Virus record (IMG/VR): IMGVR_UViG_3300032223_001056
Location: 1 to 34,521 of that record
From: a virus
Length of the DNA: 34,521 nt
Strand: one strand, 5' to 3'
The notes under the pieces: generated by a model
The model's database searches: none
What the model saw: the letters and a program-made list of their open reading frames with translations, nothing else
What the model was told of the DNA's origin: nothing
Part shown: positions 4,181-8,180 of the stretch, in pieces
How positions within the stretch are numbered: the first letter of the stretch is position 1
Layout of the letters: each line of letters opens with the position of its first letter
Translations under genes and position numbers: made by a program

Positions 4181-5053
4181 TCAAGCATAGATTGCAGCTT
4201 TTTTGCGGCACTCCATAATTTTTGCCACAACAGCAAACAGCCCGTTTTTTTGATGAAGGTCATTAGCATCCCAGCCTACCTCATCTGCCATCACCCACGG
4301 TAATCCAGTCTTCTGCGCTGCCTTCTCTCCAGTCTGACTAGCATCATTGTCCGCGAACACAAACCGGTCTCCGGGAATCTGATCAGCCACTGCTACTAAA
4401 TTTATGGCCGAAAAAGCCACCACTACAGATGCTGGTAGACCCACACTCCTCAGTGCCGCTCGTAAGCTCAAACCAGTCGCAAACCCTTCCACCAGCCATG
4501 TCTGCTCGCATCCACGCAGACCTAAAGTCAGCACGGCATTTTTGGCCCTCATACCGGGCATCATCTTTTTTTGCCAGAGCCGATTATCGGGATCCCACCA
4601 GATCGATTGGTATCCCTGCAATTTATTCGTCACCACGTTACGCATCGGGACAAGCAACCTGCCATCCAACACCAATCCTCGAGAATCCTCAAAACCCTTG
4701 AATTTCAGGTAATCGTGATGCCCCTGTACTGCAGACCTCAGAATCGTTTCTGCCCGATTGGCAGCATCCTGATATGACCTCTCCTGATTAGATGCCTCTG
4801 AGGCTCGTTTATTCGCCCATAGACGCTTTTCCTCGGCAGTCCAAGGCTTACCCCTATCCCCATCAAACCAAACAACTCTAGCCTCTCCTGACCAGTCCAT
4901 GACCCATCCGCGCTCACCGTCCCAAAAGTACGCCCCATTGCCTGACCGGGGTTTTTCGGTGGTTCCACAACGCTGGATCTTGCTGGAGGGAAAAAATCGG
5001 TTTGGATTGATCTCAACTCCATGACCTCGAGCAAAACTGATGAAATCGCTCAC
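4181..5053 (-). CDS. TOPRIM-domain DNA primase
   Basis: The 290-residue protein has a primase-type TOPRIM core: strand VLTLGL then WLVEGFATGLSL (E189), VVAFSAINLVAVA, and RFVFADND (D235, D237), followed by WDANDL (261-266). These acidic residues bind Mg2+ in DnaG-type primases, which make RNA primers for replication. The N-terminal part (GAYFWDGERGWVMDWSG) resembles the region before TOPRIM in short phage primases; a classical CHC2 zinc finger is absent. Starts with GTG at 5053, overlapping the helicase stop (GTGA), so the helicase and primase are translationally coupled. It is the last gene of the early operon. Confidence 0.85.
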   Translation of the reverse strand: MSDFISFARGHGVEINPNRFFPSSKIQRCGTTEKPRSGNGAYFWDGERGWVMDWSGEARVVWFDGDRGKPWTAEEKRLWANKRASEASNQERSYQDAANRAETILRSAVQGHHDYLKFKGFEDSRGLVLDGRLLVPMRNVVTNKLQGYQSIWWDPDNRLWQKKMMPGMRAKNAVLTLGLRGCEQTWLVEGFATGLSLRAALRSVGLPASVVVAFSAINLVAVADQIPGDRFVFADNDASQTGEKAAQKTGLPWVMADEVGWDANDLHQKNGLFAVVAKIMECRKKAAIYA

Positions 5054-7392
5054 CTTATCCCCTTCTTGTAGGCAATGTTCATCTGCTTGATCTTGTTCAT
5101 CACGTTGCGACTGATTTCAACCTGCGGCGCAGTTTTGAATGACCACTTAGTCTCCTGCCCCGTAATCTTTTTGTACAGATGCCACGCCCGTCCTGACTGC
5201 TTTTCAGGCTTGCTGAACACTCTGGCATAAGCGCATACCTGATTCCACAGGTGTTGAGCATTCTCTGCCAGCTTTTTCTTGTTTTTACCTTCTCCCATGT
5301 AAATCTCGGTCATGTGCCCCGGCAGGGCTTCGCTGATTTGCCGGGAAACCTTCTCGTACCCACAAGCCATACACCGCTTGTGAAAAGGCGTGTAACCGCA
5401 CCGCGGGCACCCCGTCTTTTCAAACTCCTCTTGCTTGCGGATCGCCTTATCGAGCTTCTCCCCATCATCCAGCTTGTCCAGACCATTGAAATAGATTTCG
5501 TTGAAATCCTCCCAGAACCGGACGATATTCCCGCTGAAATCCAGTAGATGACAATCCTTCTTCCCAGTCTCGGGTGACGAACGCAAGCCCCGGCCCCACA
5601 TTTGGATCGCGGTGCTCAAACTCTTGCGCAATGGCCGTGCATCGCAGATGCATCCGACATCAGGCACATCAAAGCCCTTCGCCAAGGCTTCTACGCTGAT
5701 CAGCACCCGCAGGTAGCTACCGGGCTTCCTATACTCCTCCAACAACTTCTCACGCTCTTTACTGGTGGTCTCCGAAGTAAATACCGCTGCCATCACCCCA
5801 ACATTGATGAACTGCCTGCACAGCTCCTCGCAATGTTTGATCGTCGCCCCAAAAACAATCGTTTTGCGGTTATCACCATATCGCTGCCAGTCAAAAACTA
5901 CATCCCCGATAATTTCCATTCCCCGCTCTTCAGCAGCCTTGTCCGTCCATTCCCCACCGGCAGTGGCTGCGCCCGTCATATCGGGCTTGTGGCACGAAAA
6001 GAAACGAAATGGCACCAGAACCCCATTCTGGGTCAGATCGTGCATCGTGGTGGCATTTACGAGGTTTGTGAAAAGCTTTCCCAGACCAGATGTGAATGGG
6101 GTGGCCGATAACCCGATCACGACTGCCTTGGTTTCCTTGGCAAACTCAGTCCACGCCTTGTACGTGGTATGACAGTTATGAACTAGGATGCCATTTGCAA
6201 AATATGATGGATGACCTGAGACCCGTAGGTTGTATACAAGTTCATCGCTTCCTCGTTCTTCAATCTCAACACTTTCCACCCAAGAGAACGCACCAAGCAA
6301 TCCTTCTTCCGATCTTGCTCTTGCCTCTTTTTTGCGCAATGACTCATCCCGTCCAATTCGATTGCAATCATCAAACGAGCATTTGCCAAATCCAGCTTGT
6401 AATGATGTGGATATCCTTCCTTCGTTGACTTTTTCGTCGTCAGAACAAATTCCGTAACCCACTCGTCCCCGAGGGCAAGCAAAAAAGTACGCTGAGGTAA
6501 TGTCAGCCCACGACCATTGCCCCCCTGAATTTTTGGCTTGTGCCCAATCTTCAGCAGGGTCTCCCGCATTTTGTCCCGCGATGATTCGTTGTGCATAGGG
6601 TTCTTCAATCTCTTTGCACAAGATTGACCACAAGTCATGCGATTCCTGAATTGAGATTCCGCTTCCGACCTTGGGGTTCCGTTTGGATACTTCTCCATCT
6701 TTGGAAAAATTTTCGTCCCACAAACGCCGCAAACCTTGTATGCGAAACAACTTCTCACCGATACCCAAGGTGCCAGCGGATTTCCATCCCAACTCGGTAA
6801 ATACAGGATGGTCTGGTGTGCATCGGAATATTGTTCCATCAGTAGCCCTCACTTTGACAAATTTGGTTGCTGGCTTAGAGAAAACGGATTGAACTCGGCC
6901 AATACCCATGCTATTGTATATGAGATCGCCACTACGGACATTGCGTATTTCAACTAAACCTTGTGCGGTTGAAACCAAAGTGTCGCCGGGGAAACACTCG
7001 TCGACTACCAGAACATCCATCTGCGGCCAGAATTGGCGCTTGGCAATCGTCTGCACACTGGCAATCTGGAACAACTCATAGGGGCGGCGACGCCAGTGAC
7101 TGGCCTGAATCACCCCATGATCCTTCATGCCATAGCGGTCAGCTACCGCAGAAGTCTGATCAATAAGGGTAGTCCTGTCACACAGGAAAACCGCACGTTT
7201 CCCCTTCTGGACTGCCTCCCGGCATACCCTTAGTCCAAGGTACGTCTTACCAGCCCCCGTAGGGGCCATGATGATCTGGTTTTTGTGACCCTCCCGAAAC
7301 CCCTGCCGCAGAGCCTCATGGGCATTGGTTTGGAAGTCTCGGGGGGTTGGGAATCCATCATCACTCTCACGCGGAGCTAGGACTGCGTTCAT
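5050..7392 (-). CDS. SF2 DNA helicase precursor interrupted by intein
   Basis: The 780-residue precursor is a DEAD/H-type helicase: motif I APTGAGKT (43-50), motif II split as VLVVDE | CH, SAT (429-431, motif III), and motif VI MWGRGLRSSPE (598-608). Near the C-terminus a zinc ribbon has C662, C665, C674 and C677. Residues 133-406 are an intein; splicing would give a 506-residue helicase with an intact DECH box. Until splicing, Walker B is broken, so activity depends on it. ATG 7392 overlaps the ParB-like stop as TAATG, with AAAGG upstream. It probably unwinds DNA for phage replication together with the primase encoded directly after it. Confidence 0.92.
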   Translation of the reverse strand: MNAVLAPRESDDGFPTPRDFQTNAHEALRQGFREGHKNQIIMAPTGAGKTYLGLRVCREAVQKGKRAVFLCDRTTLIDQTSAVADRYGMKDHGVIQASHWRRRPYELFQIASVQTIAKRQFWPQMDVLVVDECFPGDTLVSTAQGLVEIRNVRSGDLIYNSMGIGRVQSVFSKPATKFVKVRATDGTIFRCTPDHPVFTELGWKSAGTLGIGEKLFRIQGLRRLWDENFSKDGEVSKRNPKVGSGISIQESHDLWSILCKEIEEPYAQRIIAGQNAGDPAEDWAQAKNSGGQWSWADITSAYFFACPRGRVGYGICSDDEKVNEGRISTSLQAGFGKCSFDDCNRIGRDESLRKKEARARSEEGLLGAFSWVESVEIEERGSDELVYNLRVSGHPSYFANGILVHNCHTTYKAWTEFAKETKAVVIGLSATPFTSGLGKLFTNLVNATTMHDLTQNGVLVPFRFFSCHKPDMTGAATAGGEWTDKAAEERGMEIIGDVVFDWQRYGDNRKTIVFGATIKHCEELCRQFINVGVMAAVFTSETTSKEREKLLEEYRKPGSYLRVLISVEALAKGFDVPDVGCICDARPLRKSLSTAIQMWGRGLRSSPETGKKDCHLLDFSGNIVRFWEDFNEIYFNGLDKLDDGEKLDKAIRKQEEFEKTGCPRCGYTPFHKRCMACGYEKVSRQISEALPGHMTEIYMGEGKNKKKLAENAQHLWNQVCAYARVFSKPEKQSGRAWHLYKKITGQETKWSFKTAPQVEISRNVMNKIKQMNIAYKKGIR
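6175..6996 (-). mobile_element. Intein in Walker B motif of helicase (274 aa)
   Basis: Encoded as precursor residues C133 to N406. Visible splicing motifs: block A CFPGDTLVST with Cys1; block B TDGTIFRCTPDHPVF with TxxH (TPDH); block F ELVYNLRVSGHPSYFANG; block G ILVHN followed by C+1 (C407). This is the set for a class 1 intein: Cys1, block B His, penultimate His, terminal Asn and a +1 Cys. The middle (about residues 225-365) does not look like LAGLIDADG or HNH in this frame. Instead the DNA there carries an out-of-frame endonuclease gene at 6183-6839. The insertion point DE|CH is a conserved catalytic motif, as is usual for inteins. Confidence 0.9.
6183..6839 (-). CDS. VSR/EDxHD-like homing endonuclease nested in intein, other frame
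   Basis: A complete 218-residue ORF, one frame off the helicase-intein frame and wholly inside it. ATG 6839 follows GTGAGGG with six bases spacing. Domains: zinc-finger-like C37xxC40 ... C70xxxC74; a NUMOD3-like DNA-binding stretch DKMRETLLKIGHKPKIQGGN (89-108); then a nuclease core with E130, YKLDLANARLMIAIELDG (147-164) and H167, followed by QDRKKD and GWKVLRLKN. This matches Vsr-like/EDxHD nucleases, a PD-(D/E)XK-related family that includes free-standing homing enzymes. It should cut intein-less helicase alleles and drive spread of the intein. Its TAG lies two codons before the intein end. The first 35 residues overlap intein block B and may not be conserved. Confidence 0.85.
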   Translation of the reverse strand: MEQYSDAHQTILYLPSWDGNPLAPWVSVRSCFAYKVCGVCGTKIFPKMEKYPNGTPRSEAESQFRNRMTCGQSCAKRLKNPMHNESSRDKMRETLLKIGHKPKIQGGNGRGLTLPQRTFLLALGDEWVTEFVLTTKKSTKEGYPHHYKLDLANARLMIAIELDGMSHCAKKRQEQDRKKDCLVRSLGWKVLRLKNEEAMNLYTTYGSQVIHHILQMAS

Positions 7393-8180
7393 TATTTACC
7401 TTTCAATTTGTCCAATTCTTTTTGCAATTTCTTGACCATCTTCACGGCCTCGTTGCGTTCATTCATCAAACCGTGCAGGCGCACTTCAAGTTGACCGTTA
7501 AGCAAATTCAACCTCTTGATTTCTTCGTGCGCCACCTTCAACGGATCGTCAGACTCCAAGAGCTTGTGCATCGCATCAACATCTGCCTGATGAGCCAATT
7601 CAGATGCCTTGATCTCGTCATCATCAGGATTTGCACCTGCATGCGGATCAGGATCACTACTAATCGGATTAGTAGTCGGACTACTAGTCGGACGAGTATC
7701 TCCAAACTTCTTCTCTGCGGACTTCTGACGGTTATTTTCTTGCCGTTCTTTAACTTTGGGATCACGAACTGACGCCACAAATGACTTTGACAGTTCGCAT
7801 AGCTTGGCGATCTCGTAGTTAGATTTCTCGGTGTAACCCGGGATCAACAATGCCATAGTGATCTTGTTGCGTTTGTCCTCGTTGGTCAAGGTCTTTCCAT
7901 GCTTGGCGTTGGCTTTGAGCGCAGCAAGGATGGCCTCTTCTTTAGTCCCCGGTTTGTAAATTACATCAATTTCTTTGATTCCAATAATTTTATATGCATG
8001 CCATCGGTGAAACCCATCCGTCAACCAATGTGTTGATCCATCAAATACAGTCTCAAGCGGAGGGAACTCGCTGCCTTCTTTCATATGCTCCGCGTAGCTG
8101 TAAACCGTTGGCTGGTCTATCACTATACGACACTGTGTCCCACCATCAATGCAAATGGATTCAAGCTTCAATTTCTTCAT
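7392..8180 (-). CDS. ParB-like nuclease/DNA-binding domain protein
   Basis: 262 residues. The N-terminal 100 residues form a ParB/Srx-type domain, with FPPLETVFDGSTHWLTDGFH around the key DGFHRWHA (55-62). The middle (about 110-140) looks like a helix-turn-helix region (NYEIAKLCELSKSFVASV), as in ParB. A Pro/Ser/Asp-rich linker follows, then a C-terminal coiled coil (about 205-262). Plasmid ParB binds centromeres; phage versions are often replication or regulatory factors. No ParA partner is present. A GGGAGAAAAA site precedes ATG 8180, ten bases after the Cro-like gene. Confidence 0.85.
   Translation of the reverse strand: MKKLKLESICIDGGTQCRIVIDQPTVYSYAEHMKEGSEFPPLETVFDGSTHWLTDGFHRWHAYKIIGIKEIDVIYKPGTKEEAILAALKANAKHGKTLTNEDKRNKITMALLIPGYTEKSNYEIAKLCELSKSFVASVRDPKVKERQENNRQKSAEKKFGDTRPTSSPTTNPISSDPDPHAGANPDDDEIKASELAHQADVDAMHKLLESDDPLKVAHEEIKRLNLLNGQLEVRLHGLMNERNEAVKMVKKLQKELDKLKGK

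What the first reader, a model, noticed from the sequence alone, without database searches (positions are those of the whole stretch)
6175..6996. Homing endonuclease gene written out of frame inside the intein it would mobilise
Seen: the helicase frame is open through the whole intein and keeps blocks A, B, F and G. A second minus-strand frame (6183-6839) is open for 219 codons in the same DNA and encodes a VSR/EDxHD-like nuclease with zinc-finger and NUMOD3-like parts. At 6183-6300 both frames show family motifs at once: intein VYNLRVSGHPSYFANG and nuclease GWKVLRLKN plus the C-terminal helix. The nuclease TAG falls inside the intein's last codons. A rough chance of a stop-free second frame over 219 codons is near 3 in 100,000 if codons were random. 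Known: homing endonucleases are normally fused in frame to inteins, and Dassa et al. (2009) described free-standing Vsr-like nucleases between split intein halves. Inference: a dual-coding intein, possibly an intermediate between contiguous and split forms. I do not know of a described case with a full alternate-frame nuclease.
Basis: partly seen in the sequence, partly recalled or inferred. Interest (0 to 1): 0.95.

Follow-up and report, generated by a model that had tools for sequence, protein, structure and literature searches.

The report
Intein with hidden out-of-frame homing nuclease
In this phage helicase gene, one stretch of DNA is read in two frames at once, as a self-splicing protein insert (an intein) and as the DNA-cutting enzyme that would spread it, and the same arrangement recurs in at least 158 related virus sequences, so it is a conserved and unusual kind of mobile element rather than an accident.

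Summary
Window 6175-6996 (-) is a 274-aa intein in a phage SF2 helicase, inserted at motif II (DE|CH). Its DNA also encodes, in the +1 frame, a complete 218-aa EDxHD/Vsr-like endonuclease (6183-6839). Scans of viral and phage collections gave 166 distinct nuclease loci. In 158 the nuclease lies in exactly the +1 frame of an unbroken intein; in 4 the intein is split around the nuclease. No in-frame fusion was found. Both frames are under selection. Nuclease codons that would make a stop in the intein frame if they ended in T never do so (0 of 2,284 against about 549 expected), and this avoidance is absent in the two split-intein loci tested. Nuclease-synonymous change falls by about half where the frames overlap the splicing blocks. 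Catalytic residues are invariant in 114 of 115 nucleases. Near-identical inteins sit in clearly diverged helicases, with identity dropping at the intein ends, as homing predicts. Splicing, translation of the nuclease and cleavage are untested. The closest published case found, the ShiLan domain, has a hidden HNH gene but no splicing domain. Xanthomonas phage FoX3 carries an independent second case, with a LAGLIDADG gene in the +2 frame.

The parts
5050..7392 (-). SF2 DNA helicase gene (precursor, 780 aa), one open frame through the intein
   Evidence: ORF; Pfam ResIII 7.5e-16 and Helicase_C 5e-13; phrog_16 DNA helicase 7.7e-73
6997..7392 (-). N-extein (aa 1-132), ends ...VLVVDE at helicase motif II
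   Evidence: alignment with intein-less L020 and L021
6175..6996 (-). Intein, 274 aa, Cys1 to Asn274
   Evidence: NCBIfam intein_Nterm and intein_Cterm; Pfam Intein_splicing; C1, T60, H63, H273, N274 conserved across relatives
6703..6996 (-). N-terminal splicing half of the intein (blocks A, B), Hint fold
   Evidence: pLDDT about 90-96 up to about residue 90, falling after; gp41-1 and DnaB inteins as Foldseek matches
6298..6702 (-). Middle of the intein frame, no known fold; apparently the out-of-frame reading of the nuclease
   Evidence: pLDDT mostly under 50 over intein residues 99-233; nuclease-synonymous change unconstrained here
6175..6297 (-). C-terminal splicing half (blocks F, G: VYNL...LVHN)
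   Evidence: intein_Cterm profile; pLDDT over 90
5050..6174 (-). C-extein, from the +1 Cys (6172-6174), DE|CH after splicing, to the stop
   Evidence: extein alignment with L020
6183..6839 (-). EDxHD/Vsr-like homing endonuclease gene, 218 aa, in the +1 frame of the intein
   Evidence: Pfam DUF559 6.2e-9, DUF559 in 16 of 16 aligned members; AF2 model and I-Bth0305I match
6846..6852 (-). Shine-Dalgarno-like gtgaggg upstream of the nuclease ATG, inside intein codons
   Evidence: duplex energy -8.3 kcal/mol here; family median -5.9 against -2.8 background
6618..6731 (-). Zinc-binding region of the nuclease (C37, C40, C70, C74)
   Evidence: conserved Cys set; pLDDT about 93-95
6540..6602 (-). NPM...SRxKMxxTLxxIGHKP segment, NUMOD3-like by eye only
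   Evidence: conserved in the alignment; no profile match
6186..6509 (-). Catalytic domain of the nuclease, D150, E161, H167, D176
   Evidence: these four invariant in 114 of 115; structural matches 3hrl, 3r3p, 1cw0 over residues 111-218
6183..6185 (-). Nuclease stop TAG, inside the Leu271-Val272 codons of block G
   Evidence: sequence; Leu here is NTA in 45 of 54 short-form relatives against 21% NTA among extein Leu codons

Best explanation
It is a mobile dual-coding intein. The helicase frame is translated straight through. The two ends of the insert fold as a Hint domain, which should splice itself out and restore motif II as DE|CH. The same mRNA should also be translated from an internal ATG with its own Shine-Dalgarno site, in the +1 frame, into a separate EDxHD/Vsr-like endonuclease. 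The nuclease would cut intein-less helicase alleles (DE|AH) in co-infecting phages, and repair from the intein copy would insert the whole element. The middle of the intein frame is mainly a stop-free shadow of the nuclease. Start, N-terminus, C-terminal helix and stop of the nuclease are written inside codons of the splicing blocks. Shown here: both frames, their families, selection on both, and mobility from sequence. Inferred: splicing, translation of the nuclease, and cleavage.
For: Families in both frames. +1 register with an unbroken intein in 158 of 166 distinct loci, found by nuclease-led and intein-led scans. Mid-region stops over 117 inteins (18,488 codons): intein frame 41, all in the two split loci; third frame 1,192. 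Stop avoidance 0 of 2,284 against about 549 expected, still 0 of 570 against 139 at under 50% identity; split controls 8 of 36 and 14 of 42. Nuclease-synonymous change 0.47 in the middle against 0.27 and 0.25 in the two overlaps. Catalytic residues invariant in 114 of 115. Internal ATG in 76 of 81 short forms with an SD signal, P about 7e-16 against in-intein background. Mobility: inteins 95-99% identical with flanks 66-83%, edges at the intein ends, as in L003/L005, L076/L082, L050/L061 and L014/L015. Empty sites in L020 and L021. Deletion derivative L011. No Rfam intron match.
Against: No experiment shows splicing, nuclease translation or cleavage. The four invariant residues were assigned by pattern, not by superposition on I-Bth0305I's active site. 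The intC profile used for counting was trained on this family and partly overlaps nuclease codons; the independent NCBIfam models, run on 17 members, matched 15. Most loci are metagenomic. Loci are related, so counts are not independent, although the test holds in 24 clusters under 50% identity.
Confidence: 0.9

Rival explanations
1. Ordinary intein with a decayed endonuclease; the +1 ORF is a chance open frame or a remnant of a frameshifted in-frame nuclease.
For: Inteins often carry decaying endonucleases; single cases of a damaged nuclease exist here, L011 and L171.
Against: The nuclease lies at +1 in 158 loci with catalytic residues invariant in 114 of 115. Nuclease positions 1 and 2 are conserved over position 3 in the middle. 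No in-frame relative was found.
Confidence: 0.03
2. The insert is a group I or II intron carrying an endonuclease gene, and the open helicase frame is incidental.
For: Phage introns often hold endonuclease genes.
Against: No Rfam intron match. Intein profiles and Hint fold at both ends. Intein frame kept free of stops against about 549 expected, which an RNA intron would not need.
Confidence: 0.02
3. The nuclease is made as a fusion through programmed +1 frameshifting within the helicase-intein gene, rather than from its own start.
For: The constant +1 register in 158 loci is compatible; frameshift sites were not searched for.
Against: The nuclease frame is closed by a stop just upstream of the ATG in most members, inside the intein. 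A conserved ATG with SD signal is present in 76 of 81 short forms.
Confidence: 0.07
4. The nuclease does something other than homing, such as defence or exclusion of competing phages, and the intein moves passively.
For: REase-fold nucleases of this kind occur in other roles (general knowledge); activity is untested.
Against: Location inside an intein at a conserved site, near-identical inteins in diverged flanks with edges at the intein ends, and relationship to the homing enzyme I-Bth0305I.
Confidence: 0.08

Closest known systems
ShiLan domain and Pacc40 insertion, mycobacteriophage methylases (Arsenault, Gosselin and Gogarten 2025, PMC11855218)
   Same: A homing-type endonuclease gene lies out of frame in an insertion that stays open in the host frame; spread by homing is inferred from distribution.
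   Different: That insertion has no splicing domain and is thought to stay in the protein; the nuclease is HNH and no RBS was found. Here the host frame is an intein, the nuclease is EDxHD/Vsr-like with an SD-like site, and both frames can be shown to be under selection.
Fractured genes: split inteins with a free-standing Vsr-like endonuclease between the halves (Dassa et al. 2009; paper not held, from memory and citations in PMC12350094 and PMC10448857)
   Same: Intein plus a separate Vsr-like endonuclease gene. Four loci here (L065, L075, L180, L181) have split halves with this nuclease between them.
   Different: In 158 loci the intein is contiguous and the nuclease is written over it in another frame. 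Whether Dassa et al. noted overlaps could not be checked.
Classical inteins with in-frame endonuclease (PI-SceI type; reviewed in PMC3943268)
   Same: Intein splicing blocks flanking endonuclease coding sequence, insertion in a conserved motif of the host protein.
   Different: There the endonuclease is part of the intein polypeptide; here it is another polypeptide in another frame. KLEP7 RNA ligase is an in-frame LAGLIDADG control.
I-Bth0305I, EDxHD homing endonuclease (PDB 3R3P)
   Same: Catalytic domain fold (best Foldseek match; Z 9.4).
   Different: Known as a group I intron endonuclease (general knowledge and PMC3943268), not written over an intein; only 21-23% identity.

Membership tests
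Intein (class 1) | N- and C-terminal splicing blocks with Cys1, TxxH, C-terminal His-Asn and a +1 nucleophile | tested here: met
Intein (class 1) | Hint fold | tested here: met
   AF2 ends over pLDDT 90; Foldseek gp41-1 TM 0.84 of target
Intein (class 1) | Self-splicing joins the exteins | not testable with these tools
   needs expression of the precursor
EDxHD/Vsr-like homing endonuclease | Vsr-like catalytic fold related to I-Bth0305I | tested here: met
   DUF559 and MTES_1575 profiles
EDxHD/Vsr-like homing endonuclease | Conserved acidic and His catalytic residues | tested here: met
   D150, E161, H167, D176 invariant in 114 of 115; mapping onto the I-Bth0305I active site was not done residue by residue
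EDxHD/Vsr-like homing endonuclease | Cuts the allele lacking the element and drives its insertion | tested here: inconclusive
   sequence signs of homing only; no cleavage assay
Classical intein with in-frame endonuclease | Endonuclease domain in the intein reading frame | tested here: not met
   nuclease at +1; no nuclease-family match in the intein frame
Fractured gene with split intein | Intein halves on separate genes | tested here: not met
   one unbroken frame in the window; met in L065, L075, L180, L181
ShiLan-type out-of-frame endonuclease insertion | Host-frame insertion lacking any splicing domain | tested here: not met
   splicing domain present; definition from PMC11855218
Group I or II intron | Catalytic RNA core | tested here: not met
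   no Rfam match to an intron family

The most novel reading that the evidence does not exclude
A third, widespread architecture of intein mobility. The homing endonuclease gene is overprinted on the intein that carries it, so start, stop and ends of the nuclease are welded into the splicing blocks. It arose at least twice with unrelated nucleases and frames: EDxHD/Vsr-like at +1, and LAGLIDADG at +2 in phage FoX3. It interconverts with fractured and free-standing forms. The entanglement could slow loss of the endonuclease, because changes in the overlaps that damage it often damage splicing too.
Probability: 0.7. Interest if true: 0.93.

Novelty: new variant of a known kind. Interest (0 to 1): 0.9.

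Why it matters
Inteins are described as carrying their endonuclease in frame or, when split, as a separate gene. Here an endonuclease gene uses the intein's own codons in another frame, in phages annotated as infecting Vibrio or Corynebacterium, in a Pseudomonas phage, and in many uncultured viruses. None of the 40 matched phage records listed shows a nuclease among the annotations under the match, so it has been missed by annotation. It gives a natural and testable case of overprinting with well over a hundred homologues, a possible route between contiguous and split inteins, and a possible reason why an endonuclease could resist decay. It also suggests re-reading inteins whose middle looks like nothing known.

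Tried and rejected
PDB sequence search with the nuclease gave only chance matches. Scans with the broad alignments failed for lack of conserved stretches. Internal promoter scan: none. Rfam: no intron. Polarity of dual-coding to split or free-standing was not resolved: the tree has 128 columns and many open forks; only the grouping of all dual-coding rows apart from split and free was rejected (p-AU 0.0024). Dassa et al. 2009 is not held. L241's host gene got no PHROGs match.

Full report
What is there. Window 5050-7392 (-) is one open frame of 780 aa for a phage SF2 helicase (ResIII, Helicase_C; phrog_16). It is interrupted at motif II, VVDE|C, by an intein of 274 aa, 6175-6996. NCBIfam N- and C-terminal intein models and Pfam Intein_splicing match. 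The same DNA, read in the +1 frame, gives a 218-aa protein at 6183-6839 that matches Pfam DUF559 at 6.2e-9.

Structure. AlphaFold2 on window plus IMG/VR relatives gives a Hint fold at both ends of the intein with pLDDT mostly above 90, and a middle, residues 99-233, mostly under 50. Its PDB matches are inteins such as gp41-1 and DnaB. The nuclease model has mean pLDDT 82, with a confident zinc-binding part and catalytic domain. The top Foldseek match is I-Bth0305I, probability 1.00 although E is 0.012. VIA-align puts NGO0050 (3hrl) at Z 10.3, I-Bth0305I at 9.4 and Vsr at 9.3, alongside mitoribosomal proteins and the FASTKD4 RAP module at similar Z.

Relatives. A single-protein scan of IMG/VR gave 11 loci and tblastn of phage records gave 42. 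All 18 examined first had intein and exteins in one frame and the nuclease at +1, with extein identity down to about 26%. Profile scans, led once by the intein instead of the nuclease, enlarged this. The final count is 166 distinct nuclease loci: 158 at +1 with an unbroken intein, 4 at +1 with a split intein, 4 without a recognised intein pair. Of the last four, L212 and L221 are free-standing and lie just upstream of SF2 helicase genes, L213 is free-standing beside an unassigned ORF, and L234 has only the N-terminal intein half recognised. No in-frame fusion was seen. Most inteins sit at DE|C; L229 and L260 are in terminase large subunits at DEAQ|C and DEASR|C.

Both frames are selected. With nuclease amino acids held and codons redrawn from host usage, the window's intein frame would hold about 11.5 stops and none of 4,000 draws was open. 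Over all clusters under 90% identity, codons that would create a stop by ending in T never do: 0 of 2,284 against about 549 expected, and 0 of 570 against 139 in 24 clusters under 50% identity. In the two split loci tested, where the frame need not be open, T is used 8 of 36 and 14 of 42 times. The third frame has 1,192 stops over 18,488 codons; the intein frame has 41, all in two split loci. On the nuclease side, catalytic residues are invariant in 114 of 115. In the middle its third positions vary most; in the N-terminal overlap the highest divergence is at nuclease position 2, the intein wobble position; nuclease-synonymous change is 0.47 in the middle and 0.27 and 0.25 in the overlaps. So the splicing blocks are truly dual-coding and the middle codes mainly for the nuclease.

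Start and stop are embedded in intein codons. In 76 of 81 short forms an ATG lies near +157, mostly as GAT GG or AAT GG, that is in an intein Asp/Asn-Gly, with median SD energy -5.9 against -2.8 kcal/mol in the background. In 45 of 81 the stop spans the fifth and fourth codons counted back from, and including, the +1 Cys codon; Leu there is NTA in 45 of 54, against 21% NTA among extein Leu codons.

Mobility. Inteins of 95-99% nucleotide identity lie in flanks of 66-83% identity, with the change at or close to the intein ends, in L003/L005, L076/L082, L050/L061, L014/L015 and L114/L121. Intein-less relatives read GACGAG|GCCCAC (DEAH) where the window reads GACGAG|intein|TGTCAT (DECH). L011 is a 155-aa mini-intein that keeps only the last 54 codons of the nuclease frame, a deletion derivative. 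L171, on a Rhodovastum plasmid, keeps the intein open while the nuclease motif has decayed.

Split and second cases. L065, L075, L180 and L181 have intein halves with 15-27 stops between them and the nuclease at +1, and the two read in full overlap both halves. The nuclease tree places the split loci as one clade; holding all dual-coding rows apart from split and free-standing ones is rejected (p-AU 0.0024), and free-standing rows are scattered, so changes of state happened more than once or the root is among them. Independently, Xanthomonas phage FoX3 has an intein at DE|C of its helicase with a LAGLIDADG_2 gene (1e-21) in the +2 frame; about 5 stops were expected in the intein frame, none occur, and 0 of 5,000 draws were open. 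Pectobacterium phages Amona and Abuela show a fractured helicase with a LAGLIDADG gene overlapping both halves.

Known work. Among papers held, the nearest is the ShiLan domain (PMC11855218), an out-of-frame HNH in a non-spliced insertion. The review PMC3943268 describes intein endonucleases as in-frame fusions. Dassa et al. 2009 could not be read. Literature searches cover only open-licence papers, so novelty is provisional.

Verdict. Homing is strongly suggested by sequence. Splicing, translation of the nuclease and cutting remain to be shown.

Noticed in passing
L172 1908-2708 (Xanthomonas phage FoX3, MT161383.1): A LAGLIDADG_2 endonuclease gene lies in the +2 frame inside a helicase intein at DE|C, annotated only as helicase: an independent second dual-coding intein.
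   Followed up: partly
L065, L075, L180, L181: Split-intein helicases with the same nuclease family at +1 between the halves, at site DE(A/S)HS|C...HNC|G.
   Followed up: partly
L175 and L176 (Pectobacterium phages Amona and Abuela): Helicase fractured into two genes with intein halves; a LAGLIDADG gene overlaps both.
   Followed up: partly
L229 2619-3467, L260 2403-3467, L241 2379-3425: Dual-coding inteins in other host genes: terminase large subunits in L229 and L260, unassigned in L241.
   Followed up: partly
L011 3730-4194: Mini-intein of 155 aa keeping only the last 54 codons of the nuclease at +1, an apparent deletion derivative.
   Followed up: partly
L171 1984-2835 (Rhodovastum atsumiense plasmid RHOApe): Intein in an SNF2-related protein after DEAH; the +1 nuclease frame is open but its catalytic motif has decayed.
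   Followed up: partly
L212 2827-3471 and L221 2785-3417: Free-standing relatives of the nuclease just upstream of SF2 helicase genes.
   Followed up: no
window 4181-5053 and 7392-8180 (-): Primase-like and ParB-like genes flank the helicase; the window also holds lysis, tail and head-type genes, as expected of a tailed phage.
   Followed up: no
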